DNA of 33,591 nucleotides from Betaproteobacteria bacterium (lineage in GTDB: Bacteria; Pseudomonadota; Gammaproteobacteria; Burkholderiales; JACQAP01). This document shows positions 14,882 to 30,390 of this stretch, piece by piece; position 1 is the stretch's first letter; the number at the start of each line of letters is the position of its first letter. Made by a program: the position numbers and the translations under genes. The notes beneath the pieces were generated by a model that was not told the origin of the DNA, ran no database searches, and saw nothing but the letters and a program-made list of their open reading frames with translations. The DNA lies in contig JANXVW010000217.1 in assembly GCA_025351455.1 (NCBI GenBank), forward strand, positions 1 to 33,591, written 5' to 3'.

Positions 14882-16036
14882 CTAGGCGGGCGTCTTGCTC
14901 AAGGCGCGAGAGTTCTTGTCATCCCTGAACAGGATCGGCTTGACTTCGGCTTTGGGCGACACCGGCAACTGCGCCTGGTCGACGACTTCGGTAACCAGAT
15001 GGTGCAGCGGCGACAAGCCGCAGACCGGATCCGTGTTGGTCGCATCGCCGGTCAGCATGTAGGCCTGGCAACGGCAGCCGCCGAAGTCCTTGACCTTCTC
15101 CGGACAGGAGCGGCACGGCTCCTTCATCCAGGAGTCGCCGCGATAGGCATTGAAACCCGGGGAGTCGTACCAGATCCAGCCCAGGTCATGATCGCGCACG
15201 TTGGGGAAAGTCAGTCCGGGAAGCTGACGCGCTTCGTGGCAGGGCAGGGCCAGGCCGTCGGAAGTGACAGTGAGGAACAGCGCTCCCCACCCGTTCATGC
15301 ACGCTTTCGGACGTTCCTCGTAGTAGTCGGGAACGACGAAAAAGATTTTCATTTTGTTGCCGACGCGCTCACGGAATTTGTTGGTGACTTCCTCGGCGCG
15401 CTTGAGTTGCTCGCGCGTGGGCAGTAACTGTTCCCGGTTAACGTAGGCCCAGCCGTAATACTGCGTGTTCGCCAATTCCACATACTCGGCGTTCATCGCT
15501 TCGGCCATTTCCAGGATCTGCTGCACGTGATCGATGTTGTGCCGATGCAGGACGCAGTTGAGCACCATCGGGTAGTCGTATTGCTTGATCAGCTTCGCTA
15601 CTTTCTGCTTCAGCTCGAAAGTCTTCGTGCTTGACAGGAAATCGTTCATTTCACGAGTGGAGTCCTGGAACGAGAGCTGGATGTGGTCTAGCCCTCCCTC
15701 CTTGAAGGCGGCGATGCGCTTCTCGCTCAGACCGATGCCGGAGGTGATCAGGTTCGAGTAATAGCCGAGTTTGCGCGCCTCGGTGACCATGATTTCGAGG
15801 TCGTCGCGCATCAACGGTTCGCCTCCCGAAAACCCCAACTGGGTGGCGCCGAGTTCGCGGCCCTGCCGCAACACCCGCAGCCAGTCGTCGGTGGTCAGTT
15901 CTTCGCCGTAACGCGTGTAGTCGATCGGGTTGTAGCAGAACACGCAGTGCAGCGGGCACTTGTACGTGACTTCAGCCAGCAGCCAGAGCGGATTACCCGG
16001 CTTGCTTGGGACGGATCCAGCCTTTTCCATGTACAT
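14882..16036 (-). CDS. pqqE: PqqE, radical SAM PqqA cross-linking enzyme
   Basis: A 384-residue radical SAM/SPASM enzyme that joins Glu and Tyr side chains of PqqA by a carbon-carbon bond. The radical SAM cluster motif CPLHCVFC gives C27, C31 and C34, and the motif LGFSGGEPLMR follows. The C-terminal auxiliary cluster cysteines lie in CRSCPEKVKDFGGCRCQAYM and VCGLSPLHH. The start overlaps the pqqD stop by 44 nt; an ATG two codons later (16030) is an alternative, and the conserved part begins at PLWLLAEVTYKCPL. It is preceded by pqqD, its required peptide chaperone. Confidence 0.98.
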   Translation of the reverse strand: MYMEKAGSVPSKPGNPLWLLAEVTYKCPLHCVFCYNPIDYTRYGEELTTDDWLRVLRQGRELGATQLGFSGGEPLMRDDLEIMVTEARKLGYYSNLITSGIGLSEKRIAAFKEGGLDHIQLSFQDSTREMNDFLSSTKTFELKQKVAKLIKQYDYPMVLNCVLHRHNIDHVQQILEMAEAMNAEYVELANTQYYGWAYVNREQLLPTREQLKRAEEVTNKFRERVGNKMKIFFVVPDYYEERPKACMNGWGALFLTVTSDGLALPCHEARQLPGLTFPNVRDHDLGWIWYDSPGFNAYRGDSWMKEPCRSCPEKVKDFGGCRCQAYMLTGDATNTDPVCGLSPLHHLVTEVVDQAQLPVSPKAEVKPILFRDDKNSRALSKTPA

Positions 16037-16286
16037 GCTCCAGGAATCCCATGACGTCCCCTTTCAGGTCCATACCGGGAAATGCGGTTTGCAAATCTTC
16101 AATGATGCCGCGTACAGTCAATTTGCCGTCGATGCGCTTCATGATTTCGCCGGAACTGCCGGGCAGTTTGACCATGCCCTCCGGATAGAGCAGGACGAAG
16201 CCCTGTTGCGCCGGTTCCCACTGGAAGCGGAAATGGCGCTGCAGCTCGAACACTGTATCGTCGGTGAACGGGGTTGTTTCAGACAT
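15993..16286 (-). CDS. pqqD: PqqD, PqqA-binding peptide chaperone
   Basis: A 97-residue RiPP recognition element that binds PqqA and presents it to PqqE. Recognised by [23 protein letters not shown] and the helix with ILM-type pattern ([23 protein letters not shown]). The frame continues upstream, but the ATG at 16286 matches the family start. It overlaps the pqqC stop by 8 nt and pqqE by 44 nt, so C, D and E are tightly coupled. Confidence 0.97.
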
Positions 16287-16998
16287 ATTTCGTGGCGCCG
16301 ATGCCGTAGTTGATCTGCATTGCGTCGAGCATGCTCCACAGCACGTCGAGTTTGAACTGCAGGATGCCCAGCGCACGCTCCTGTTCCGCGCGGGTCTTGA
16401 AATACTCGAGCGTGATCTGCAGGCCATGCTCAACATCGCGGCGCGCTTCCGACAGGCGCTTGCGGAAGTAGGCATAGCCCTCCGCATCGATCCACGGATA
16501 ATGCTGCGGCCAGTTCTCCAATCGCTTCTGGTGGATCTCCGGAGCGAACAATTCAGTCAGCGACGAGCACGCGGCTTCCTGCCAGGGCGCGCGTCGGGCG
16601 AAGTTGACATAGGCATCCACGGCGAAGCGCACACCGGGCAAAACATATCTCAGTGAAGTGACATCATCGCGTTTCAAGCCACAGGCTTCGGCCAATCGCA
16701 ACCACGCCTCGATGCCGCCTTCCTGCCCTTCGATACCGTCGTGGTCGATGATGCGCTGGATCCATTTCCGGCGCTGGTCGCGATCGGGCATGTTGGCGAG
16801 CACTGCGGCATCCTTGACCGGAATGCTGATCTGATAATAGAAGCGGTTGTAAACCCAGCCCTGCACCTGCTCCTTCGTGAACTTGCCGCTGTTCATGGCG
16901 ATATGGAACGGGTGGTAGATATGGTAGCGCTTGCCCTTGGCACGCAGTTCGGCTTCGAATTCCTGCTTGCTCCACGGCAGATCGTCGGCGGCACCCAT
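16279..16998 (-). CDS. pqqC: PqqC, pyrroloquinoline-quinone synthase
   Basis: A 239-residue all-helical cofactorless oxidase that performs the final ring closure and eight-electron oxidation to PQQ. Family stretches include [38 protein letters not shown], and the histidine-containing [20 protein letters not shown]. The length is close to the usual 250 residues. The gene starts 12 bp after pqqB ends. Confidence 0.98.
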
Positions 16999-17010: not shown

Positions 17011-17925
17011 TCAGAGCTTCACGTCCATGCCGTCGAACGCGACTTCGATTCCCGCGCTGGCCAGCTGCCTGCGCTCGTCGGAGTCTTCATCGAGGATGGG
17101 GTTGGTGTTGTTGATGTGAATGAGGATCTTGCGCGACGCCTTCAGCGGCTTCAGCACTTCGATCATGCCGCCGGCGCCCGATTGCGGCAGGTGGCCGATG
17201 TCGCGCGCGCGTTTCTTGGAAAGTCCCAGTCCGATCATTTCGTCGTCCGTCCAGAATGTGCCATCGACCATCAGGATATCGGCTTCTTCCAGAAACGGCT
17301 TCAGGTGAGGTTCGATTTCCCCCAAGCCGGGGGCGTAGAACAATACCTTGCCGGAGCGCGGGTCGGCGATGCGCATGCCGATGTTGTCACCCTCAAGCGG
17401 GTTGTCGCGATGCGGAGAATAGGGCGGCGCATTGCTCTTCAGCGGCACCGCGGTGAACTTGAGGTCTTCCGCACCGATGACGGGGAAGCTGTTCCCGCGT
17501 TCGGTCGGAACCTTGTGCCAGTGGACCCCGCAATAGTGTCCGAGAATCTTGAACAGGGGATTGCCGGTACTCAGATCTTCGCGGGCCATCTCGGTGCAAT
17601 AGATTTCCAGCGGGCGTCCCTCACGCAGCATCAGCAAGCCGGTGGTGTGGTCGATCTGCGCATCCATCAACACCACCGAACGGATGGCCGTATCGCGAAT
17701 GGCGCGTGCGGGTTGCAGTGCCGCAAAACCCTTGTATTGCGCCAGCAGGTCCGGTGAGGCGTTGAACAACACCCAGTTGACGTCGTCTGCGCTGACCGCG
17801 ATGGAAGATTGCGTCCGCGGCGTGGCGCGCAGGCTGCCTTTGCGAACGCCGTCGCAGTTGCGGCAATTGCAGTTCCACTGCGGGAAGCCGCCGCCGGCTG
17901 CGGCACCCAATACCCTTATTCTCAT
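17011..17925 (-). CDS. pqqB: PqqB, MBL-fold hydroxylase of PQQ synthesis
   Basis: A 304-residue metallo-beta-lactamase-fold protein, shown in other bacteria to be an iron-dependent hydroxylase acting on the Glu-Tyr intermediate. Visible family features are MRIRVLGAAAGGGFPQWNCNC with the CxCxxC zinc-type cysteines, DAQIDHTTGLLMLREG as the modified metal motif, and LPQSGAGGM. The frame is open upstream to 17994, but MRIRVLG at 17925 is the family start. It is separated from pqqA by 79 bp that hold a strong hairpin. Confidence 0.98.
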   Translation of the reverse strand: MRIRVLGAAAGGGFPQWNCNCRNCDGVRKGSLRATPRTQSSIAVSADDVNWVLFNASPDLLAQYKGFAALQPARAIRDTAIRSVVLMDAQIDHTTGLLMLREGRPLEIYCTEMAREDLSTGNPLFKILGHYCGVHWHKVPTERGNSFPVIGAEDLKFTAVPLKSNAPPYSPHRDNPLEGDNIGMRIADPRSGKVLFYAPGLGEIEPHLKPFLEEADILMVDGTFWTDDEMIGLGLSKKRARDIGHLPQSGAGGMIEVLKPLKASRKILIHINNTNPILDEDSDERRQLASAGIEVAFDGMDVKL

Positions 17926-17956
17926 GGCGTCAATTCGTTGTAAGCCTTGCAAGAAA

Positions 17957-17985
17957 GACAAAAGCCCCATGAAGGGGCTTTTGTC
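17957..17985 (-). terminator. Hairpin between pqqA and pqqB (attenuator or RNA-processing site)
   Basis: Perfect 12-bp inverted repeat GACAAAAGCCCC / GGGGCTTTTGTC around a 5-nt loop. On the transcribed minus strand it is followed by a T-rich stretch (TTTCTTGC). It starts 20 nt after the pqqA stop. Partial termination or mRNA protection here would raise PqqA over PqqBCDE. Confidence 0.8.
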
Positions 17986-18004
17986 CAAGCCCAACGCTGA
18001 TGAA

Positions 18005-18076
18005 TTAGCGGTTGGCGATGTACATCGTGACTTCGAAGCCGAAACGCATTTCGGTGTACTCAGGCTTGGTCCACAT
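18005..18076 (-). CDS. pqqA: PqqA precursor peptide, copy 1 (operon copy)
   Basis: A 23-residue ribosomal precursor whose Glu15 and Tyr19 become the PQQ skeleton. The sequence begins [14 protein letters not shown], then has EVTMY (E15 and Y19 in the required ExxxY spacing) and ends IANR. Residue numbers match K. pneumoniae PqqA. A GGAG ribosome site lies 9 nt before the ATG (GGAGAAAAATTATG). Too short to be found by ordinary ORF length limits. Confidence 0.97.
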
Positions 18077-18225
18077 AATTTTTCTCCAAAAGTTTAGGTT
18101 GTAAAATCAGCGGGATGTTCCCCGACGCTGCCGAACTACCGGCTGCTTGACTGCTGAGTTGGCCAATGCAACCTTGCCCAGCGAGTCACATCTATTCTGC
18201 GCAATACGCGAGCTTCTGGCCCTAC

Positions 18226-18260
18226 GAAAATCACCAAATCTGCGTCATGATTTTCATTAG
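18226..18260 (-). promoter_or_regulatory. Putative regulatory element upstream of pqqA copy 1
   Basis: On the minus strand this holds CTAATGAAAATCATGA followed by GATTT and TTTTC blocks. The first 16 bases are identical to those upstream of pqqA copy 2 (22840-22874), and 28 of 35 positions match overall. The core ATGAAAATCAT is a dyad (ATGA-AAA-TCAT). The element is 149 nt (nearest edge) upstream of the pqqA ATG and 51 nt upstream of the divergent TonB-family gene, so it could serve both. It may bind the regulator encoded at 22144. Confidence 0.7.
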
Positions 18261-18311
18261 TCTGGGTGTTCAAACTTTACTTACCTCAATGGCTTGCACT
18301 ACCCTTCGAAC

Positions 18312-19376
18312 ATGTCAGACGCCGCCCTCGACAGAGGACTCTATTTCCCTACTTCCATGACCGACTGGTACCGCGAGCGCTCTTTCAGAGTGGCCTTTGC
18401 GGTGTCCGTGGTGATTCATGCGGTTCTGATCGCCTTTATACCCGGTTTTCGTTCCGTCTCGATCGAAACGCCAAAGGTGATGGAGGTTGAGATCATGGCG
18501 CAAGAAGCGCCGCCGATTCCTCGTGTCCAGGAAAAGCCGGTCGTGCCGCCGAAAGCGGTCGAACCGAGAATAGAGCCGAAGCCCGAATCGCTAGTGCAAA
18601 AGCCGCAACCTGAGCCGATTCCCGGACCCGTCGTGAAACAAGCATTGCCTGAGCTCCCGCCCGTTCCCCGATCGGAAATCATCCGGGCCACACCGCGCGC
18701 CGAGCCAAAGCCGGAGTTTGTGGTGCCGAAGCCCGAATTGCGCCCGGAACCCAAAGCCGAACCCAAACTCGAATCCAGACCCGAGCCGAAGATCGAGCCG
18801 CGGCCCGAGCCGCCGCCCCTGGCACGAGTGGAGCCGCGACCGGAGCCGCGACCGACGCCAACGGTAGAACCCCGGCCAGAGCCACGCATCGAGCCCAGGG
18901 CTGAGGTTCGGCCGGAAATAAAGCCGGTTCCGAGCGAAACGCCTCCACCTGTCGTTCAGCCTCGCGTCGAACCGTCTATTGCCGCGCCAACCGCCGCGCG
19001 TCCCGCGCCCGCTCCCGTGGCGGTACAACCCCCGCCCGTCGTCGCCCCGCAGCCCAAAGCGATCGATGAAAGTCGTGAGCGCACGTTGAGGGATCAATAT
19101 CAGCAGATCATCTCGGCGCGGATCAAGCAGTTCGAAGAGTATCCACCGGTTGCGAAGCGGCGTCACTGGGAGGGGACCACCGTGGTTCAATTGCGCCTGA
19201 GTCCCGACGGCATGGTGACGGATATTTCGGTTGTGGAGAAAAGCGGCCACGAAATCCTCGATGAGGCGGCCGTGAACATGATCCGCAGGGCATCGCCATT
19301 GCCGGCCCCGCCGGAAGGTCTGCGCGGGCGGGATCAAACCGTCCTCGTTCCGATCAAATTCAAACTCGAATCCTGA
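18312..19376 (+). CDS. TonB-family energy transducer
   Basis: A 354-residue inner-membrane protein that would couple the proton motive force to outer-membrane receptors. It has one N-terminal membrane helix (FRVAFAVSVVIHAVLIAFIP), then a long periplasmic Pro/Glu/Lys/Arg-rich spacer of repeated EPKPE and EPRPE units (about 65-245). The C-terminal TonB domain starts near DQYQQIISARIKQFEEYPP and includes TTVVQLRLSPDGMVTDISVVEKSGHEILDEAAV. The start is uncertain: ATG 18312 is used here, with TTG 18294 and ATG 18357 as alternatives, and none has a good ribosome site. ExbB/ExbD are not in the window. Divergent from pqqA, it is the natural partner of the receptor at 23187. Confidence 0.88.
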   Translation: MSDAALDRGLYFPTSMTDWYRERSFRVAFAVSVVIHAVLIAFIPGFRSVSIETPKVMEVEIMAQEAPPIPRVQEKPVVPPKAVEPRIEPKPESLVQKPQPEPIPGPVVKQALPELPPVPRSEIIRATPRAEPKPEFVVPKPELRPEPKAEPKLESRPEPKIEPRPEPPPLARVEPRPEPRPTPTVEPRPEPRIEPRAEVRPEIKPVPSETPPPVVQPRVEPSIAAPTAARPAPAPVAVQPPPVVAPQPKAIDESRERTLRDQYQQIISARIKQFEEYPPVAKRRHWEGTTVVQLRLSPDGMVTDISVVEKSGHEILDEAAVNMIRRASPLPAPPEGLRGRDQTVLVPIKFKLES

Positions 19377-19395: not shown

Positions 19396-20358
19396 ATGGC
19401 CGCAGACCAGAATCAGGCCGACGGCGCTGCGTTATATCCGCAGCTGGAGCCTTATCGCCGCGACTGGCTTGAGGTGGGCGGCGGACATCGGGTTTATTTC
19501 GAGGAGAGCGGAAATCCCGAAGGGTTTCCGGTACTTTTTGTGCATGGCGGACCGGGCAGCCAGTCGCGTCCCGCGCACCGCCGATTTTTCGATCCTGCAT
19601 TTTTCCGCATCATCCTGTTCGATCAGCGCGGTTGTGGCCAGAGTACGCCACGTGGTTCCCTGGCCGACAATACGACGGCGCATCTGATTGCCGACATGGA
19701 CGGGTTGCGCCGCCACCTTGGCGTGGAGCACTGGCTGCTGTTTGGCGGTTCGTGGGGCAGCACGCTGTCGATGGCCTATGCGGTGGTGCACGCGGATCGG
19801 GTTGCCGGCATGATATTGCGCGGCGTATTCCTCGGCAGTCGCGCGGAAGTGGACTGGTTCCTGTCCGGCGTGCGCAACATTATTCCCGAGGCGTGGGCGG
19901 AGTTTGCCGGCGGTGCGGACCAGCCCCTTGTGCAGCATTACCGCAGACTTATCGACAATCCGGCGGAAGGAATCGCCGCTGCAGCCGCCAGGCGCTGGAA
20001 TGACTACGAGGCGAGGGTCATGGATCCTGCCAATCCGTCTGCGTCAGCAGGGACGGCTTCCGCGCCGGAGGTTCTGGCTAGCGTGAAAGTCCAGTTGCAC
20101 TATCTCGCCAACGAGTTCTTTCTGCGTCCCGAGGAATTGCTCGATAATCTATGGAGAATACCGAACCTGCCCGTGATCATCGTGCAAGGAAGAATGGACC
20201 TTGTCTGTCCCCCCTTGACCGCATTCGCCGTGGCGCGTGGCATCGGCAACGTGGAATTGTGCATGGTCGCAGACGGCGGCCATTCGGCTTTGCAGCCGCA
20301 AATGGCGGCACAATTGAGTGCGGCGACGCGGCGCATTCAAACCCGCATCAGGCGCTGA
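19396..20358 (+). CDS. pip: Proline iminopeptidase (alpha/beta hydrolase)
   Basis: A 320-residue prolyl aminopeptidase that removes N-terminal proline from peptides. It has the oxyanion motif FVHGGPGSQSRP, DQRGCGQSTPRG, the nucleophile S119 in GGSWGS, the acid near QGRMDLVCPP and the catalytic histidine in GGHSAL. The length and motifs fit the classic PIP family (peptidase S33). It lies 19 bp after the TonB-like gene and 4 bp before the sensor kinase, so all are one transcription unit. Because PqqA has a conserved Pro5 in its leader, a role in leader clean-up is a reasonable guess but not shown. Confidence 0.92.
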   Translation: MAADQNQADGAALYPQLEPYRRDWLEVGGGHRVYFEESGNPEGFPVLFVHGGPGSQSRPAHRRFFDPAFFRIILFDQRGCGQSTPRGSLADNTTAHLIADMDGLRRHLGVEHWLLFGGSWGSTLSMAYAVVHADRVAGMILRGVFLGSRAEVDWFLSGVRNIIPEAWAEFAGGADQPLVQHYRRLIDNPAEGIAAAAARRWNDYEARVMDPANPSASAGTASAPEVLASVKVQLHYLANEFFLRPEELLDNLWRIPNLPVIIVQGRMDLVCPPLTAFAVARGIGNVELCMVADGGHSALQPQMAAQLSAATRRIQTRIRR

Positions 20359-20362
20359 CCCG

Positions 20363-22129
20363 ATGCGCAACCTGAGCTTGCGCTTTCGCATCAACGTGGT
20401 CATCACGCTTGTGATCGTGGCCTTCGTCATTGCAACCGGCAATCTGCTCATCGAAGAAACCCGGCGATCCATCCGCGAAGAAATGGAGGCGGGAACGCGG
20501 ATCACCGCGCAATTGCTCGAAACGGTCATTGTGAACACCCGCCCGAATATTCAGGACGCACCCCACAATCAGGTCTTGTTGTCCTTTCTGCAACGCGTGG
20601 GCCGGGTCAGGGCAAACGAAATCCGGCTCTACGATGAAAACGAAAAGCTCCTTTACACTTCTCCGCCGCCCGTCTATAAGCGCGGCCGGTGGGCGCCGCA
20701 GTGGTTTACCGGACTTGTTCGTCCCAAATTGAGCGACTACCGCTTGAACCTTTCCAATGGAAGCGTGGTGATCACGCCCGACCCGTCGCGTTCCGTGCTG
20801 GATGCGTGGGATGACCTCAAGCAGTTTTTTTGGCTGATTCTCGGATTCTTCGTGCTCGTGAATGTCATCGTATTCTGGCTGCTTGGGCGGTCACTGCGGC
20901 CCGTCGGAAAAATTCTTGGGGGATTGTCCCTGATGGAAAAGGGGCGGTTTGAGACGCGGTTGCCGATGTTCGGTTCGCCCGAATTCGATTCCATCGGTCA
21001 GGTTTTCAACCGCATGGCGCAAACCCTGGAAGAGAGCCTCGCCGAAAACCGGCGGCTGGCGCTGGTGGCGACGCAATCCAGCGATGCGATCATCATTCAC
21101 GATCTCGAGGGCCGGATTTCATTCTGGAATCCTGCTGCAGAACGGATGTTCGGCTATCGGGTGGAGGATATCGTCGGGCGTTCCGCCACATTGTTGACTA
21201 CGCCCGATCGGCAGGGTGAATTGCAGGAAAATCTTGATACGGTGAAGCGGCGCGTCCTGATCGAGATGATAGAAACCCAGCGTGTTAGCAAAGACGGGCG
21301 GGTGGTCGACGTCGCCCTCTCCGCGGCACCACTGGTCGATCCCGTAAGCGATGAGGTGATCGGTGAAATCTGCAGCATGCGCGACATCACGGAGCACAAG
21401 CTCGCGCAGCAGGCCGAACTCGAGCTGGAGCAGAACCGCCAACTGACCCACGCGATCCAAAGCAGGCTGGAAGAAGAACGCCGCAGTATCGCGCGCGAAC
21501 TTCACGATGAACTCGGGCAATGCGTTACGGCGATCAAGACCATCGGCACGGCGATAGCCAATCGCACGCAGGACAGTTCGCCCGACGTCCATGCCAACGC
21601 ACTGACAATCGTGTCCGTCGCTTCGCACATCTATGATGTCGTGCACGGTATCATTCGCCAGCTCCGGCCGACCGCGCTCGATCATCTGGGGTTGAGTGAA
21701 ACACTGAAGGATTTCGTCTCGGCGTGGCGTGACAGGCATCCGGAAATCGTGTGCGAGCTGCAACTCGACGGTGCAATCGAGGGAATGGGAGAGACCATCA
21801 ACATTACCGTGTATCGCATCGTCCAGGAGTGCCTGACCAACGTCGCTCGCCACGCTGCCGCGACCCGTTCGGATATTCACGTGACGAGGATCAACGATTC
21901 CCGGCACCGGGACGTCGTGAAAGTGGCCGTGCACGACAATGGCAAAGGATTTGCGCAGCGGCGCGAACGGGAGGCCACCCGCTTTGGTCTCATTGGCATG
22001 CGCGAACGCGTGCAGGCGCTCAACGGTGAATTCAACATCGACAGCCGACCGGGGGAGGGCGTAACGGTAACCGCGGTCATCCCGGTGCGGATCCCCGGGT
22101 CCGGTTATCCTGGCGCCGCAACCGGCTAG
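20363..22129 (+). CDS. Sensor histidine kinase, MoxY/LapD-N type with HAMP and PAS
   Basis: A 588-residue membrane kinase. The order is: TM1 (about 10-28), a periplasmic domain of ~125 residues resembling the LapD/MoxY N-terminal domain (ending near 150), TM2 (FFWLILGFFVLVNVIVFWLL, 155-174), HAMP, a PAS domain (about 232-345, with ATQSSDAIIIHD and FGYRVEDIVGRS), then a HisKA_3 dimerisation domain with phospho-acceptor H381 (RSIARELHDELGQ). The HATPase domain has the N box (RIVQECLTNVARHA), and G boxes (VHDNGKGF, GLIGMRERV). It is in the NarL/UhpB-type family. In Paracoccus, moxYX control methanol oxidation genes, so a signal linked to alcohol or PQQ metabolism is likely. Confidence 0.93.
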   Translation: MRNLSLRFRINVVITLVIVAFVIATGNLLIEETRRSIREEMEAGTRITAQLLETVIVNTRPNIQDAPHNQVLLSFLQRVGRVRANEIRLYDENEKLLYTSPPPVYKRGRWAPQWFTGLVRPKLSDYRLNLSNGSVVITPDPSRSVLDAWDDLKQFFWLILGFFVLVNVIVFWLLGRSLRPVGKILGGLSLMEKGRFETRLPMFGSPEFDSIGQVFNRMAQTLEESLAENRRLALVATQSSDAIIIHDLEGRISFWNPAAERMFGYRVEDIVGRSATLLTTPDRQGELQENLDTVKRRVLIEMIETQRVSKDGRVVDVALSAAPLVDPVSDEVIGEICSMRDITEHKLAQQAELELEQNRQLTHAIQSRLEEERRSIARELHDELGQCVTAIKTIGTAIANRTQDSSPDVHANALTIVSVASHIYDVVHGIIRQLRPTALDHLGLSETLKDFVSAWRDRHPEIVCELQLDGAIEGMGETINITVYRIVQECLTNVARHAAATRSDIHVTRINDSRHRDVVKVAVHDNGKGFAQRREREATRFGLIGMRERVQALNGEFNIDSRPGEGVTVTAVIPVRIPGSGYPGAATG

Positions 22130-22143
22130 CAGAAGGAATCAAA

Positions 22144-22800
22144 TTGGAGAGCAAATTGGCAATCGGGAACATCAGCGTGATGCTTGTCGACGATCACGCC
22201 GTCGTGCGCATGGGCTTTCGATTGCTTCTGGAGGGGTCGTCGGACATCCGAGTGGTGGCCGAGGCCGAAAGCGGGGAAGAGGCCTGCCGCAAATATCCCG
22301 AAGTCAGGCCGGACGTTGTGGTCATGGACATTTCCATGCCCGGAATCGGAGGCCTCGAAGCGATCGATCGCATCCTGGCGCGCGAGCCCACAGCGCGCAT
22401 CCTGGTCCTGTCAGCACACGAAGATGCGATGCATGCGCGCAGGGTGCTGAAGGCGGGCGCGGCGGGCTATCTCACCAAGCGCAGTGCGGCGGAAGCCCTC
22501 ATGCAGGCAATCCGCCAGGTGCGCCAGGGTAAGACATTTCTCGAGCCGGAAATTGCGCAGCAGCTTGCCATGCACCAACTCAATGGTGAGCGCAATCCAC
22601 TCGACATGCTGAGCGAAAAGGAATTCAAGGTCTTCCTTTCCCTGGCCAAGGGCCAGTCGGTTGCTGATATCGCGGGAGTCATGTCGCTTAGCCCTCGCAC
22701 CATCGGTACCCACCTCTACAACATCAAACAGAAGCTGGGTGCTTCGAATTCCGCTGAACTGGCCATCATTGCCATTCGCGCCGGACTCATAGAACCTTGA
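22144..22800 (+). CDS. NarL/LuxR-family response regulator (MoxX-like)
   Basis: A 218-residue two-component regulator. The receiver domain has the acidic pair D16, D17 (VMLVDDHAVV), phospho-acceptor D62 (VVVMDISMPG) and the lysine in GYLTKRSA. The C-terminal LuxR helix-turn-helix reads LSEKEFKVFLSLAKGQSVADI...LSPRTIGTHLYNIKQKLG. The start is a TTG at 22144 with AAGGAA at 22133-22138 as ribosome site; later starts would delete the first receiver strand. The gene begins 14 bp after the kinase stop and is its evident partner. Its targets probably include the adjacent pqq promoters. Confidence 0.93.
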   Translation: MESKLAIGNISVMLVDDHAVVRMGFRLLLEGSSDIRVVAEAESGEEACRKYPEVRPDVVVMDISMPGIGGLEAIDRILAREPTARILVLSAHEDAMHARRVLKAGAAGYLTKRSAAEALMQAIRQVRQGKTFLEPEIAQQLAMHQLNGERNPLDMLSEKEFKVFLSLAKGQSVADIAGVMSLSPRTIGTHLYNIKQKLGASNSAELAIIAIRAGLIEP

Positions 22801-22839: not shown

Positions 22840-22874
22840 CTAATGAAAATCATGAGTCGGATTTCAGGGTTTTC
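22840..22874 (+). promoter_or_regulatory. Putative regulatory element upstream of pqqA copy 2
   Basis: Plus-strand CTAATGAAAATCATGA followed by GATTT and TTTTC blocks, matching the pqqA copy 1 upstream element at 28 of 35 positions and in the same orientation relative to pqqA. It ends 110 nt before the ATG. The flanks between it and each pqqA are not similar, so the element has been kept selectively. Confidence 0.7.
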
Positions 22875-22984
22875 CGGTGGGGATGGCGCAGGGGTTCACC
22901 CAGAATGTGTCTCACGGTCGTGATGAACGGCCCCGATGCCCGAAAAGTGGATTCAACTCTCTAATCTCTCTAAGGAGCTCTACC

Positions 22985-23056
22985 ATGTGGACGAAACCCG
23001 AATACACCGAAATGCGCTTTGGCTTTGAAGTCACGATGTACGTGTTCAATCGCTAA
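22985..23056 (+). CDS. pqqA: PqqA precursor peptide, copy 2 (orphan)
   Basis: A second complete 23-residue PqqA. It is identical to copy 1 through residue 19 (including E15 and Y19 in EVTMY) and differs only at 20-21 (VF in place of IA) before the shared NR end. Several synonymous codon differences show that it is not a recent exact duplication. AAGGAG at 22972-22977 gives a strong ribosome site 7 nt before the ATG. It lies alone between the response regulator and a terminator, with no pqqBCDE next to it. Confidence 0.95.
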
Positions 23057-23073: not shown

Positions 23074-23105
23074 AAAGGGCTGCTTTCGAGCAGCCCTTTT
23101 TTATT
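23074..23105 (+). terminator. Intrinsic terminator after pqqA copy 2
   Basis: Perfect 10-bp stem AAAGGGCTGC / GCAGCCCTTT with a 6-nt loop, followed by TTTTTTATTT. It starts 17 nt after the pqqA stop and isolates the small gene as its own transcript. Confidence 0.93.
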
Positions 23106-23186: not shown

Positions 23187-25355
23187 ATGCGCGCTGTTTC
23201 ATTCGAACTGGCACTAAAGCCGGTCTGCGTCGCCGTATTTATTCTGGGTTCGGGTATTTCTGTGGCGCAAGAAGACGCAGTGCGCCTTGCGCCGATTGTG
23301 GTTACGCCGACACGCGTGGAGCAGTCGAGCTTCGACTTGCCAACCGCAATCAATTCGATCGACAAGGAAACAATCCAGGAACAACGGCAGGGCGTCAATA
23401 TTTCGGAGGCGCTGGTTCGTGTGCCGGGAACTGTAGTGCAGAACCGTGAGACCTTTTCCCAGGAGCAGCAGATCATTGTGCGGGGATTTGGCGCGCGCGC
23501 CGGTTTTGGCGTACGCGGCGTCAAGCTTCTGGCTGATGGCATTCCGGCAAGTACGCCCGACGGCCAGGGGGGCACAGGCCTATTTGACCTGGAGTCGGCA
23601 AAAAGCATAGAGGTATTGCGCGGTCCGTTTTCAGCACTTTACGGCAACCACTCTGGCGGAGTCGTACAGGTATTCACCGAAGACGGACCAGATCGGCCCA
23701 CCATCACGCCATACTATTCCTTCGGCAGTTATGAGACGTGGAGGGTTGGCCTGAAATTCGGCGGGCAGCTCGGCGACCTGAATTACATTGCCAATGCCTC
23801 GCATTTCGAGACCGACGGCTATCGCGACCACAGCTCCGCAATCAAGGACCAGTTCAATTCCAAGTTCAAGGTCAAGCTAAGCGAGTCGACGTCGCTAACC
23901 TTCATCGTCAATTACATCAACCAGCCCGACAACGAAGACCCACTCGGACTGACCGCGACCCAGGTACAACAGAACCGGAAGCAGGCGATTCCGGCGGCTT
24001 ATCAGTTCGAAACCGGCCGCAGTCTAAGCAACCTGCAGACTGGGGCCGTCATCGAGCACGCGCTGACGGACCAGGACCGGCTGCGACTCATTGCTTACGT
24101 GGGCAACCGCAAAAATGACGGCAACATCGCGGTCGGCACCAATACCATCACGACCTCGGGTGGCGTAACGGTTCTGGATCGCGATTTTTACGGCTTGGGG
24201 GCGAGATGGACCCACAGCACGGATCTCTTGTCGCGACCTTTATCCATTACCTTTGGCGCTGATTACGATTCCGCAACCGATGGCCGCAAGGGTTATGTCA
24301 ACAACAACGGCGTTGCAACCTTCCTGAAGCGCGACGAGGCCGATTCGGCCGCAAGCGCTGGCGGTTACGTCCAGGCCGAGTGGGCGTTCGCCGAACAATG
24401 GAGCGCCAGTGCAGGTTTGCGCTATACCAAGGTCAACTTCGAATCTGACGACCATTACGTCTGCCGCGCGCCGGGCAATGCTTCTGCTCTGCCGATCTGC
24501 CCCGGCATCGTCGCGGGAAGCGGAGTCAATCCCGACGACAGCGGGTCGCTGAGTTTCGATGCCTGGACGCCGGTCGCGGGACTGGTGTTCAAGGCGACGC
24601 CGACCTGGAATATCTATGCGAACGTCGGCAAGAGCTTTGAGACGCCCACGCTGATTGAACTGGCCTACCGGCCAGACGGTTCGCCCGGATTGAACTTCGG
24701 CATGCAGCCGAGTAGCAGCATCCATTACGAAGTGGGCACGAAGATATTCGCTGGCACGAGTACGCTGGTGGAAATGGCGGTTTTCCAGATCGATACGCAA
24801 AAGGAAATCGTGGTCGCATCGAACATCGGCGGGCGCCAGGCATTCAAGAATGCTGGGGACACCCAGCGCAGGGGCGTCGAATTGTCGGCGAATTCGCGCT
24901 GGGGCCACGGCTTTACGACCTATCTCGCGGCCACATACCTGAATGCGACCTTCGAGGAAGCTTTCACCAGTTGTGCGGGAACGCCTTGCACCGCTTTCAC
25001 GGTGCCCGCCGGAAACCGAATACCGGCGGTGCCGCGCTACAACGTTTACGGCGATATCGGATGGCGTTACCCGGCTTTGGGTTTTTCGACTGGATTGGAA
25101 CTGCGCTGGCAGGGAAATGTCCCCGTCAATGATTCCAATTCGGAATTTGCCAACAGCTATTTCGTCGCTGCTGTTCGTGGAGGTTTTGAACAACGTACCA
25201 GTGATTGGCGGTTTACGGAATTCGCGCGAGTCGACAACGTGTTCAACGAGCTCTACATTGGCGCGGTCTACGTAAATGACGGCAATGGGCGCTTCTATGC
25301 TCCTGCAGCAGAGCGCAACTATACGGTCGGCGTTTCGGCGAGTTATCAATTTTGA
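23187..25355 (+). CDS. pqqU: TonB-dependent receptor, PqqU/YncD-like (probable PQQ uptake)
   Basis: A 722-residue outer-membrane receptor. It has a signal peptide ending near ISVAQ, a TonB box region APIVVTPTR, a plug domain (about 45-160) with IRGFG/VRGFGARAGFGVRG-type motifs and LRGPFSALYGNHSGGV, and a 22-strand barrel ending in the aromatic residue of ASYQF. From memory, many segments match E. coli YncD: DGIPASTPDGQG, GYRDHS, SFETPTLIELAYRPDGSPG, EIVVASNIGGR, FKNAGDTQRRGVEL and NDGNGRFYAPAAERNY. YncD was shown to import PQQ and was renamed PqqU. AAGGGAGG at 23171-23178 supports the ATG. The neighbouring propeller and pqqA genes fit the same role. A different quinone or metal chelate cannot be excluded. 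Confidence 0.85.
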   Translation: MRAVSFELALKPVCVAVFILGSGISVAQEDAVRLAPIVVTPTRVEQSSFDLPTAINSIDKETIQEQRQGVNISEALVRVPGTVVQNRETFSQEQQIIVRGFGARAGFGVRGVKLLADGIPASTPDGQGGTGLFDLESAKSIEVLRGPFSALYGNHSGGVVQVFTEDGPDRPTITPYYSFGSYETWRVGLKFGGQLGDLNYIANASHFETDGYRDHSSAIKDQFNSKFKVKLSESTSLTFIVNYINQPDNEDPLGLTATQVQQNRKQAIPAAYQFETGRSLSNLQTGAVIEHALTDQDRLRLIAYVGNRKNDGNIAVGTNTITTSGGVTVLDRDFYGLGARWTHSTDLLSRPLSITFGADYDSATDGRKGYVNNNGVATFLKRDEADSAASAGGYVQAEWAFAEQWSASAGLRYTKVNFESDDHYVCRAPGNASALPICPGIVAGSGVNPDDSGSLSFDAWTPVAGLVFKATPTWNIYANVGKSFETPTLIELAYRPDGSPGLNFGMQPSSSIHYEVGTKIFAGTSTLVEMAVFQIDTQKEIVVASNIGGRQAFKNAGDTQRRGVELSANSRWGHGFTTYLAATYLNATFEEAFTSCAGTPCTAFTVPAGNRIPAVPRYNVYGDIGWRYPALGFSTGLELRWQGNVPVNDSNSEFANSYFVAAVRGGFEQRTSDWRFTEFARVDNVFNELYIGAVYVNDGNGRFYAPAAERNYTVGVSASYQF

Positions 25356-27748: not shown

Positions 27749-29017
27749 ATGAACCAGGATCTAGTTTTTGCAACTTATCTGATCGAGACGCCGCACTCGC
27801 TTGAGCATGCCGCAGCCGTACTCGCTGGCGAGCAATCGAGCGGTACGTTCGTTTCCGTCCCCGGCGAAACCAGCGAATTGAAGGAGCGTTTCGGCGCGCA
27901 GGTGGTGCGTATCGAACCGCTCGACACCGTACCTGCGCCGAGCCTGCCTGGCAGCAAGGCCCCGCATTCGGGTTCGGGCCGTCCCGCATACCACCGGGGC
28001 CGCGTCGTCATCTCGTTTCCTTTGCACAACTTCGGTCCATCGCTTCCCAGCCTGCTCGCCACCGTTGCAGGCAACCTGTACGAGCTGCAGGAACTGTCAG
28101 GAATTCGGCTCGAGGATCTCGAGCTGCCGCAGGCTTTTGCACAACGCTACCCCGGCCCGGGTTTCGGCATCGAGGGTACGCGCAAGCTTGTTCAAGTATC
28201 GGGCCGCCCGCTGATCGGAACGATCGTCAAGCCCAGCATCGGCCTGTCCACCGAGGCGCTGTGCAAGCTGGTGCGTGACCTGGCGTCGGCCGGGCTGGAC
28301 TTCATCAAAGACGACGAGCTGCAGGCCGATCCGCCGTACGCGCCGCTGGCTCAGCGAATTGCTGCGGTCATGCGCGAGATCGAGCGCGTAGCCGATGCAA
28401 CCGGCAAGAAGGCCATGTATGCCTTCAACATTACCGGCGACGTGGACCACATGCTGCGCGCCCACGACCTGGTGAAGAAACACGGCGGCACCTGCGTGAT
28501 GATCAACATCAACAACGTCGGCTTCGCGGCGCTTGCGCATATGCGGCGCCACTGCGCGTTGCCGATTCATGGCCACCGCGCAAATTTCGGCGCGATGGCG
28601 CGCCACCCGCTGCTTGGCATCGGTTTCACCGCGTACCAGAAGCTGTGCAGGCTCGCGGGCGTGGATCATCTGCACGTGGGCGGCTTCAACAGCAAATTCT
28701 ATGAGACCAACGATGAGGTTGGCCGCTCGATCAAAGACTGCCTTACACCACTGTTTGCCGACTATCGCGTCATGCCGGCGATCTCGTCCGCGCAATGGGC
28801 CGGCTCGGCGTTGCCGATCTATGCCGCCACGAAGACCATCGACGTGATCCACCTGGCCGGCGGTGGAATCATCGCGCACCCGGGAGGCACCGCCGCCGGT
28901 GTGCGCAGCATGCAGCAGGGCTGGGAAGCCGCCCTTGCCGGTGCGACGCTGGAAGGCTATGCGCAGACGCATCCGGAGTTGCGGGCGGCGATCGAAAAAT
29001 TCGGAGGTCGTAGCTGA
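27749..29017 (+). CDS. RuBisCO-like protein (form IV), probable 3-oxo-isoapionate-4-phosphate processing enzyme
   Basis: A 422-residue member of the RuBisCO large-chain superfamily. The carbamate/metal site is intact: K187, D189 and E190 in FIKDDELQ (RuBisCO K201, D203, E204), and K161 in GTIVKPSIGLS. The histidine region reads PIHGHRANFGA, and the phosphate loops HVGGFNSKF and HLAGGGIIAHPGG are present, but the loop-6 lysine context of true RuBisCO is absent, so CO2 fixation is unlikely. Located with a DUF1537 kinase and an ApnO-like gene, it fits the OiaC (decarboxylase) or OiaX (transcarboxylase/hydrolase) types of D-apionate catabolism. Sequence alone does not separate them. It overlaps the kinase start by one base. 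Confidence 0.88.
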   Translation: MNQDLVFATYLIETPHSLEHAAAVLAGEQSSGTFVSVPGETSELKERFGAQVVRIEPLDTVPAPSLPGSKAPHSGSGRPAYHRGRVVISFPLHNFGPSLPSLLATVAGNLYELQELSGIRLEDLELPQAFAQRYPGPGFGIEGTRKLVQVSGRPLIGTIVKPSIGLSTEALCKLVRDLASAGLDFIKDDELQADPPYAPLAQRIAAVMREIERVADATGKKAMYAFNITGDVDHMLRAHDLVKKHGGTCVMININNVGFAALAHMRRHCALPIHGHRANFGAMARHPLLGIGFTAYQKLCRLAGVDHLHVGGFNSKFYETNDEVGRSIKDCLTPLFADYRVMPAISSAQWAGSALPIYAATKTIDVIHLAGGGIIAHPGGTAAGVRSMQQGWEAALAGATLEGYAQTHPELRAAIEKFGGRS

Positions 29018-30390
29018 TGGCGATGGGCTCGAATCTGCTGCTCGCCTTCTACGGCGATGATTTCACCGGGTCCACCGACGCGATGGAGGCGCTCGCCGTG
29101 TCGGGATTGCGCACCGTGTTGTTCCTGTCGCCGCCTACGCCGGAGTTCCTGCAGCAGAGGTTTCCCGATCTGCGCTGCATCGGCGTAGCCGGCACCAGCC
29201 GCGCAATGTCCCCGGCTGAAATGGACGCGCAGCTCGAGCCGGTCCTGCGCGAACTGTGGTCCCTGCGCGCGCCGCTCACGCATTACAAAGTGTGTTCGAC
29301 CTTCGATTCATCGCCGGAGGTGGGCAACATCGGCCATGTGGCGGACATGGCGCGCCGTGCTCTCAACGCCGGCCCGATGTCGGTGTTGGCCGGCGCACCG
29401 CCGTTGCGGCGGTACACGATCTTCGGCAATCACTTCGCGGCGGCGGGAGATGACGTGTTCCGGCTCGACCGGCATCCAACCATGTCGCGCCATCCGGTCA
29501 CTCCCATGCACGAGGCCGATCTGCGCGTGCACTTGTCGCGCCAGACGCAAGCCAGTATCGGATTGATGAGCCTGCCCGAGCTGGCGGGCGACGAGGGCAG
29601 CGTGGATGTGCGCCATGCCCGCAAGCTGGAAAGCAAACCCGATCTGCTGCTCTACGACTGCGCCGACGACACAAGCCTGCGCATGGTGGGCCGCCTGATT
29701 TGGCAGCAAGCGCAGCGTGCACAACACTTCGCCATCGGATCGTCCGGTGTTGAATACGCCCTCGCAGCGCACTGGCGCGCAAGCGGCGAGATCCCGGCCG
29801 CACGGGCAACGTTCAAGCCCGTCGCGCCGGTATCGCAATTGCTGGTCGTGTCCGGCAGCGCTTCGCCGATGACGGCGGCGCAGATTCAATGGGCATCGGA
29901 GCACGGCTTCGACTGCATTCGCGCCCCAACCGAGGAACTCTGCCGCCCGCAGGGGATGGAGACCACAGCCCGGGTTTTGTACGAGCGCGCCCAGTCCTCT
30001 TTGTCTGCGGGGAAGAGCGTGGTGGTCTACACCGCTGCCGGCCCCGACGATCCGAGTATTCGAGCGACCCGCGAAACGCTGGCGACGGGTTCCGGCGGCA
30101 GTTCCGGGAACACCGCAAAGACCCTGGGCACGGCACTCGGACGAATCGCACGCGATCTGCTTGCGCGCACCGGCCTGCGGCGCGTGGTTGTGGCAGGCGG
30201 CGACACGTCGAGCTATGCCACGCAGGAGCTGGGGTTGTACGGGCTGGAGATGCTTGCCGAACTGACGCCCGGGGCTCCACTGTGCCGTGGCTATTCCGAA
30301 GATCCGAAATTGGACGGCCTGGAGATCGCGTTGAAGGGCGGCCAAATGGGTAAGGCAGATTATTTTGGCATGGCGCGAGGAGATCGCTGA
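29017..30390 (+). CDS. oiaK: Four-carbon acid sugar kinase family (DUF1537), probable 3-oxo-isoapionate kinase
   Basis: A 457-residue kinase. The N-terminal substrate domain begins with the hallmark LLLAFYGDDFTGSTDAMEAL, and the C-terminal nucleotide-binding domain has VVVAGGDTSSYATQELGL and LKGGQMGKADYFG. The family phosphorylates sugar acids such as erythronate, threonate or 3-oxo-isoapionate. Its TGATG overlap with the RuBisCO-like gene shows coupled translation and points to a kinase whose product feeds that enzyme, as OiaK does. The specific name rests on context and should be read as probable. Confidence 0.85.
   Translation: MAMGSNLLLAFYGDDFTGSTDAMEALAVSGLRTVLFLSPPTPEFLQQRFPDLRCIGVAGTSRAMSPAEMDAQLEPVLRELWSLRAPLTHYKVCSTFDSSPEVGNIGHVADMARRALNAGPMSVLAGAPPLRRYTIFGNHFAAAGDDVFRLDRHPTMSRHPVTPMHEADLRVHLSRQTQASIGLMSLPELAGDEGSVDVRHARKLESKPDLLLYDCADDTSLRMVGRLIWQQAQRAQHFAIGSSGVEYALAAHWRASGEIPAARATFKPVAPVSQLLVVSGSASPMTAAQIQWASEHGFDCIRAPTEELCRPQGMETTARVLYERAQSSLSAGKSVVVYTAAGPDDPSIRATRETLATGSGGSSGNTAKTLGTALGRIARDLLARTGLRRVVVAGGDTSSYATQELGLYGLEMLAELTPGAPLCRGYSEDPKLDGLEIALKGGQMGKADYFGMARGDR

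What the first reader, a model, noticed from the sequence alone, without database searches (positions are those of the whole stretch)
22840..22874. Same 35-nt element upstream of both pqqA genes
CTAATGAAAATCATGA occurs upstream of pqqA copy 2 (22840-22855) and, on the other strand, upstream of pqqA copy 1 (18245-18260), in the same orientation relative to each gene. GATTT and TTTTC blocks extend it to 35 nt with 28 matches. The surrounding sequence is unrelated. The core is an ATGA-AAA-TCAT dyad. I did not see a third copy elsewhere in the window. The most economical reading is an operator for the LuxR-type regulator encoded just upstream, tying both precursors to one signal.
Basis: partly seen in the sequence, partly recalled or inferred. 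Interest (0 to 1): 0.8.

Follow-up and report, generated by a model that had tools for sequence, protein, structure and literature searches.

The report
Shared control switch for PQQ genes
A 17-base mirror-image DNA sequence sits in front of most genes for the peptide from which bacteria of this order make the cofactor PQQ, and is very probably the landing site of the regulator protein encoded next door, which would switch on the copies together.

Summary
The 16-mer occurs twice in the window and, exactly, nowhere else in the 3.94-Mb genome. It is part of a 17-bp inverted repeat, CTMATGA-WWW-TCATKAG. In 300 genomes of the order the exact repeat occurs at 69 places, 60 of them just upstream of pqqA; in 365 genomes of other orders of the class, at none. 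A weaker second site lies 23 bp downstream and a -10-like box at a near-constant distance, which puts the sites at about -65 and -42 of an inferred start: the layout of an activator-dependent (class II) promoter. The element tracks an orthologue of the neighbouring NarL/FixJ-type response regulator, whose recognition helix is near-invariant; the six assessed pqqA genomes without such an orthologue lack it at 0-1 mismatch. The regulon is mainly pqqA (including scattered copies), sometimes pqqB or pqqDE, and, unexpectedly, a DUF1800-DUF1501 operon; no site was found at the own genome's PQQ alcohol dehydrogenases. No description of this operator turned up in the open-access library. The kind of thing (response-regulator operator) is known; this member appears new.

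The parts
22840..22856 (+). operator site 1 of pqqA copy 2, CTAATGAAAATCATGAG, exact 17-bp inverted repeat; centre about -65 of an inferred start
22863..22879 (+). weaker operator site 2 of copy 2, TTCAGGGTTTTCCGGTG; centre 23 bp downstream of site 1, about -42
   Evidence: 14 of 17 bases invariant in the 4 genomes of the genus
22901..22906 (+). -10-like box CAGAAT of copy 2; start inferred near 22913
   Evidence: 6 of 6 invariant in the genus
22985..23056 (+). pqqA copy 2 ([23 protein letters not shown])
23074..23099 (+). intrinsic-terminator-like hairpin after pqqA copy 2
18244..18260 (-). operator site 1 of pqqA copy 1, CTAATGAAAATCATGAC, one mismatch
18221..18237 (-). operator site 2 of copy 1, TTGGTGATTTTCGTAGG
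   Evidence: 13 of 17 invariant in the genus
18194..18199 (-). -10-like box CAGAAT of copy 1; start inferred near 18187
   Evidence: 4 of 6 invariant in the genus
18005..18076 (-). pqqA copy 1 ([23 protein letters not shown])
22144..22800 (+). response regulator, receiver plus LuxR/GerE-type HTH; proposed operator-binding protein
20318..22129 (+). sensor histidine kinase (HAMP, PAS, HisKA_3, HATPase), proposed partner of the regulator; start as listed mechanically
17011..17994 (-). pqqB ORF, downstream of pqqA copy 1 (family match from residue 25, so the true start is probably further in)
16279..16998 (-). pqqC-like (TENA/THI-4/PqqC family)
14882..16036 (-). pqqE-like radical SAM protein (named from domains and gene order)
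18294..19376 (+). tonB-like gene divergent from pqqA copy 1, sharing the intergenic region
23187..25355 (+). TonB-dependent receptor, best NCBIfam match PqqU (602.6 bits, below the cut-off of 1200)

Best explanation
The element is the operator of the two-component system encoded beside it. A dimer of the phosphorylated response regulator would bind the strong inverted repeat (centre about -65), and a second dimer the weaker site 23 bp (about two helical turns) downstream (centre about -42). There it would sit where a -35 box would be and help RNA polymerase use the -10-like box. The same promoter module stands before both pqqA copies here and before most scattered pqqA copies in relatives, so one signal would raise the sources of the peptide that is consumed to make PQQ. 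Shown by sequence: the repeat, second site, -10-like box, near-constant spacing, conservation, specificity to pqqA, co-occurrence with the regulator. Inferred: binding, phosphorylation, activation rather than repression, the transcription start, and the signal.
For: pqqA genes found without using the motif: of 107 upstream regions (150 nt or more) from genomes with the histidine kinase, 83 carry the repeat at 0-1 mismatch of 14 scored positions, and 9 of 16 from other genomes; 20 single-base shuffles of each region gave none. Exact repeats: 69 sites in 42 of 300 order genomes, 60 of them within 450 nt upstream of a pqqA core; none in 365 genomes of the class outside the order. In 89 sites chosen for the repeat, two features that were not chosen for also stand out: site 2 (positions 24-34) and a box at 63-67. 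A -10-type box (A at 2, T at 6) lies within 1 nt of position 62 in 84 of 87 sites, against 4-14 of 87 in five control windows; a TTGACA-like -35 box (4 of 6) at the matching spacing occurs in 5 of 87, control 12. Genus footprint of copy 2: site 1 16/17, site 2 14/17, box 6/6 invariant, spacer 3/21. Regulator orthologue against element, genome by genome: 44 with both, 6 orthologue only, 0 element only, 6 neither, p = 2.8e-5. Two within-family contrasts: f10 (G060 has both, G298 neither) and, more weakly, f49 (G263 regulator with a 3-mismatch site, G051 neither). The recognition helix SPRT(V/I)GTHLYNIKQKL is almost unchanged in the orthologues and absent from the paralogues sampled and from the best regulators of G006, G051, G119 and G284. 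In family f25, where no pqqA was found near the regulator, 21 of 31 pqqA genes carry the element. A sequence model hits 33 of 38 chosen genomes and none of the 5 pqqA genomes without the regulator; 32 of the 33 had supplied training sites.
Against: No binding or expression data. 24 of the 107 regions, and 10 of 31 in family f25, miss the 1-mismatch cut. Six genomes with the regulator have no site at that cut (G004, G053, G097, G173, G263, G274); four of them are family f2, where most sites have one altered half although the recognition helix is unchanged. The second half of site 2 is hardly conserved. The association test ignores relatedness, and orthologues were assigned by hand; one of the six 'neither' genomes, G136, is 79% complete and has an f2-type 3-mismatch site. 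In G217 the regulator is not beside pqqA. For copy 1 a consensus scan also found a -35/-10 match at 18105-18078, just before the start codon (0.3 expected by chance). Another regulator with the same distribution is not excluded.
Confidence: 0.8

Rival explanations
1. The repeat is the operator of another, unlinked transcription factor that regulates PQQ synthesis; the neighbouring two-component system acts elsewhere.
For: In G217, and in family f25, the regulator is not next to pqqA, so physical linkage is not universal; family f2 sites changed without a change in the regulator's recognition helix.
Against: At 0-1 mismatch the element is found only with this regulator's orthologues (0 of 6 assessed pqqA genomes without one); the recognition helix is near-invariant; repeat symmetry and position fit the NarL/FixJ type.
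Confidence: 0.12
2. The same regulator binds, but as a repressor that keeps pqqA off until a signal comes.
For: Sequence alone does not give the sign; site 2 overlaps the -35 region.
Against: A -35-like box is no commoner than in a control window (5 of 87 against 12; one base, G at position 41, is 67% conserved), and the strong site lies upstream of the core promoter, as expected of an activator.
Confidence: 0.06
3. RNA-level element: a hairpin, terminator or leader regulator.
For: It is palindromic, and copy 2 lies after the stop codon of the regulator gene.
Against: It lies upstream of the inferred start; the gene on the far side of copy 1 (tonB) is divergent; the terminator scan found nothing at the repeat, but did find a terminator-like hairpin after pqqA copy 2 and one in the copy 1 leader (18124-18111).
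Confidence: 0.01
4. Chance, or the residue of a recent promoter duplication.
For: Two copies 4.6 kb apart.
Against: The repeat recurs at pqqA in 44 genomes of 14 families (families counted by hand from the table); surrounding sequence is unrelated; each copy is separately conserved in the genus.
Confidence: 0.01

Closest known systems
CrbR / ACTU motif of acetate-utilisation promoters (Pseudomonas fluorescens, PMC5715377; passages read)
   Same: LuxR-family response regulator; imperfect inverted repeat of about 17 bp at -52 to -36 of acs (centre about -44), found upstream of 91 of 112 target homologues, not found in enterobacteria that lack the regulator; four mutations abolish activation.
   Different: Motif letters differ (listed matches such as TACTACCATCGTCGAAT), targets are acetate genes, and the passages speak of one repeat per promoter.
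MxaY/MxaB and MoxYX-type regulators of methanol dehydrogenase (PMC5018670; passages read; the name MoxYX recalled)
   Same: Histidine kinase and response regulator controlling PQQ enzymes.
   Different: There the reported targets are mxaF, xoxF and mxaB; here the element sits at pqqA, with none found at the own genome's PQQ alcohol dehydrogenases. Orthology not tested; the words binding site and palindrome do not occur in that paper.
PedS2/PedR2 of Pseudomonas putida (PMC6115532; passages read)
   Same: LuxR-type response regulator tied to PQQ-dependent alcohol oxidation.
   Different: Targets are dehydrogenase genes; the words motif, binding site and palindrome do not occur in that paper.

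Membership tests
NarL/FixJ (LuxR-type) response-regulator operator | inverted repeat of dimer-binding size | tested here: met
   17 bp, 7-3-7
NarL/FixJ (LuxR-type) response-regulator operator | fixed position relative to a core promoter | tested here: met
   -10-type box within 1 nt of the expected place in 84 of 87 sites, controls 4-14 of 87
NarL/FixJ (LuxR-type) response-regulator operator | cognate regulator with receiver and GerE HTH domains in the same genomes | tested here: met
   domains shown for the window's protein; orthologues by identity and helix
NarL/FixJ (LuxR-type) response-regulator operator | regulator binds the DNA | not testable with these tools
   needs gel shift or footprint
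NarL/FixJ (LuxR-type) response-regulator operator | element needed for activation | not testable with these tools
   needs reporter assays
CrbR ACTU motif | ACTU sequence upstream of acs/actP | tested here: not met
   by eye the letters differ from the ACTU matches listed; targets here are pqqA
MoxYX/MxaYX regulators of methanol dehydrogenase | control of methanol/alcohol dehydrogenase genes | tested here: inconclusive
   no model hit at E up to 0.1 on the contigs with PQQ dehydrogenase matches in the own genome; the assembly is fragmented and only 130 of 1068 first-look candidates were scored
MoxYX/MxaYX regulators of methanol dehydrogenase | orthology to MoxX/MoxY | not tested
   no reference sequence was fetched

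The most novel reading that the evidence does not exclude
An order-wide PQQ-supply regulon in which one two-component system sets the total amount of PqqA substrate peptide by firing the pqqA copies, wherever they lie, from one promoter module, and which also includes the uncharacterised DUF1800-DUF1501 operon, making those proteins candidates for a role in PQQ or quinoprotein biology.
Probability: 0.35. Interest if true: 0.65.

Novelty: new member of a known kind. Interest (0 to 1): 0.5.

Why it matters
Many of these bacteria carry several pqqA copies; for Methylophilaceae it is reported that typically only one copy of the other pqq genes is present (PMC4109929, passages read). The operator also gives a sequence tag for finding further PQQ-linked genes, starting with the DUF1800-DUF1501 operon.

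Tried and rejected

PQQ alcohol dehydrogenases as targets: no model hit at E up to 0.1 on their contigs in the own genome; rejected for this genome, with the limits named in the membership table. Kinase relatives on plasmids, to name the system: 16 records, none covering 80% of the query, no help. A standard -35/-10 scan found nothing at either inferred start; it found one match elsewhere, 18105-18078 before pqqA copy 1. Terminator/RNA and chance/duplication readings were rejected as stated under rivals.

Left undecided: a weak own-genome model hit (C66, E 0.0041, near a protein that by eye has a signal peptide), a G253 site (E 1.5e-4), and 1-mismatch 16-mers before TonB-dependent-receptor-like genes in G050 and G093 that the model did not find. 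Of the nine exact repeats not within 450 nt of a pqqA core, seven (G021, G031, G044, G090, G112, G164, G169) have no explanation and may be chance.

Rows dropped or weak in the counts: of 126 pqqA places, 125 were read (one G274 place was not fetched); G085 and one G097 place had too little upstream sequence. One G173 place at a contig end was misparsed and stayed in the 107 as a miss. Some tandem pqqA pairs share one site (G032, G223, G281), so the 107 and 16 are not all independent. G085 was left out of the association table. The 89 sites were chosen for having the repeat at 0-1 mismatch, so the conservation of site 1 there is by choice; that of site 2 and the box is not. The model used 60 of the 87 sites listed.

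Full report
What is there. The 16-mer CTAATGAAAATCATGA occurs exactly twice in the window, at 22840-22855 (+) and 18260-18245 (-), each upstream of a pqqA gene and in the same orientation to it. Shuffles give 0.13 matches at up to 3 mismatches. In the own genome (3,940,266 bases, 353 contigs) there are no other exact copies and three places with 2 mismatches. The family as held has 4 genomes, all of one genus, the own one included: 3 have both copies exactly and the fourth one copy with one mismatch; in the fourth the second pqqA has the variant CTAATGATATTCATGAG.

What it really is. In relatives the element is a 17-bp inverted repeat, CTMATGA-WWW-TCATKAG. To avoid choosing by the motif, I found pqqA by a degenerate pattern for its conserved core: 126 places in 57 of 300 genomes of the order. 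Of 125 places read, 123 had at least 150 nt upstream: 107 in genomes with the window's histidine kinase and 16 in others. At 0 or 1 mismatch of 14 scored positions the repeat was found in 83 of 107 and 9 of 16 (92 of 123); 20 single-base shuffles of each region gave none at 0 or 1. Searching the other way, the exact repeat occurs at 69 places in 42 of 300 order genomes; 60 are within 450 nt upstream of a pqqA core, one of the other nine lies about 400 nt before a pqqB-like gene (G163), one about 680 nt before a pqqA core (G038), and seven are unexplained. In 369 genomes sampled from the class, 365 of them outside the order, only the own genome had it.

Promoter layout. Aligning 89 sites without gaps, chosen only for having the repeat at 0-1 mismatch, shows two further blocks: a second site whose first half and spacer stand out (about TT[C/G]A[T/G]GATTTT, positions 24-34, second half hardly conserved) and a box A.AAT (63-67); a few other positions (-2 to 0, 19-20, 23, 41, 73) carry some information and the rest little. 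A -10-type box (A at 2, T at 6) lies within 1 nt of position 62 in 84 of 87 sites, against 4-14 of 87 in five control windows; a -35-like box (4 of 6 to TTGACA) at the matching spacing is found in 5 of 87, control 12. The site centres are 23 bp apart. If the last T of the box is -7, site 2 is centred at about -42 and site 1 at about -65. That is how activators of the NarL/FixJ/LuxR group commonly sit at class II promoters (established knowledge; the CrbR repeat lies from -52 to -36, PMC5715377, passages). In the genus, copy 2 keeps 16/17 of site 1, 14/17 of site 2 and 6/6 of the box but 3/21 of the spacer and 20/60 upstream; copy 1 is less sharp: 14/17, 13/17 and 4/6, with 10/21 of the spacer and 33/60 upstream. 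A consensus scan found a different promoter-like match for copy 1, at 18105-18078 just before the start codon (0.3 expected).

Which regulator. The gene just upstream of pqqA copy 2 encodes a response regulator with receiver and LuxR/GerE domains; PDB relatives include VraR, DevR and NarL. Strong matches to its kinase (E below 1e-130) occur in 43 of 300 order genomes; 46 match at the 1e-60 cut. In 30 of 49 loci with the regulator a pqqA lies on the same strand within 700 nt after it. Among pqqA genomes without a strong kinase match, those with the element (G019, G032, G060, G141, G165) have a regulator orthologue of 57-71% identity near pqqA, and G217 one of 55% elsewhere; G006, G051, G119, G284 and G298, without it, have only 36-45% relatives or none at E up to 1e-30. 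Genome by genome: 44 with orthologue and element, 6 with orthologue only (G004, G053, G097, G173, G263, G274), 0 with element only, 6 with neither; Fisher p = 2.8e-5, without correction for relatedness and with orthologues assigned by hand. The 44 span 14 families (hand count). One of the six with neither, G136, is 79% complete and of family f2. The recognition helix SPRT(V/I)GTHLYNIKQKL is almost invariant in the orthologues (SPST and YH/NV variants in a few, GTHMFHVKQKL in one of two in G169) and is absent from the paralogues sampled. In family f25 no pqqA was found in the stretches around the regulator, yet 21 of 31 pqqA genes elsewhere in those genomes carry the element, which argues for a factor acting in trans.

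Against. In family f2, with orthologous regulators, 7 of 9 readable pqqA sites have one half-site changed to an ACGTA type (two of the seven with one further change), with no change in the recognition helix. Ten of 31 pqqA genes in f25 have 2-5 mismatches. G263 has the regulator and a 3-mismatch site. Binding, sign of regulation, phosphorylation and signal are untested.

Regulon. A sequence model from 60 sites gave four hits in the own genome at E up to 0.1: both pqqA promoters, one before a DUF1800-DUF1501 operon (C209, E 3.9e-7; not among the training sites) and one weak (C66, E 0.0041). Only part of the first-look candidates is scored by that search (130 of 1068), so weak sites may be missed. 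The DUF1800 site recurs in G001 (4.7e-6) and G002 (4.0e-6), and more weakly before DUF1800-like genes in G076 (0.0046), G223 (0.026) and G067 (16-mer match only); outside the own genome these genes were recognised by their sequence, not by a family search, and DUF1501 was seen only in the own genome. Sites also precede pqqB-like genes in G163 (9.9e-10), G050 (1.6e-5) and G093 (3.4e-5) and a pqqD-pqqE-like pair in G067 (2.7e-5) (recognised by sequence). Thirteen stretches in the own genome match the PQQ alcohol-dehydrogenase family; none of their contigs had a model hit. So the evident target is supply of the cofactor, mostly of its precursor peptide.

Known or new. The kind of element, an inverted repeat bound by a LuxR-type response regulator, is well known. 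I found no description of this one: a search of the open-access library for three 15-mers of the motif gave 0 papers; searches for the core with regulator names and for pqqA with regulation terms listed none whose title or abstract start describes it (listings only, some cut at 20 rows); and the passages seen of five papers do not mention it. Most subscription papers are not held, so this is not proof of novelty. Multiple pqqA copies are known in Methylophilaceae.

Verdict. Observation confirmed, interpretation supported and extended; a new, broadly conserved operator of a known kind.

Noticed in passing
L130 7714-10667 (own genome C209:15713 onward); L235, L236: DUF1800 gene with the pqqA-type element upstream in three genomes of the genus (followed by DUF1501 in the own genome); function unknown, possible PQQ link.
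   Followed up: partly
window 17957-17985: Perfect 12-bp hairpin (by eye) between pqqA copy 1 and pqqB, possibly making a short pqqA transcript more abundant than the rest of the operon.
   Followed up: no
window 18275-18281: CTTTACT box before the divergent tonB gene, also seen beside the repeat in G003 (same distance) and G041 (about one helical turn further); the palindrome may serve tonB too.
   Followed up: no
L388 and L389 (G004), L381 (G053), L384 and L385 (G097), L383 (G173), L387 (G136): Family f2 operators with one normal half-site and one ACGTA-type half-site, although the recognition helix of the family's regulators is unchanged.
   Followed up: partly
window 23187-25355: TonB-dependent receptor nearest to PqqU (PQQ importer), below the curated cut-off, directly after pqqA copy 2 and its terminator-like hairpin.
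   Followed up: partly
window 27749-30390: RuBisCO-like and kinase genes nearest to OiaX and OiaK (3-oxo-isoapionate pathway), both below the curated cut-offs.
   Followed up: no
L182 7721-8032 (G223); L247 (G032 C201): Tandem pqqA genes 103-115 nt apart behind one shared element.
   Followed up: no
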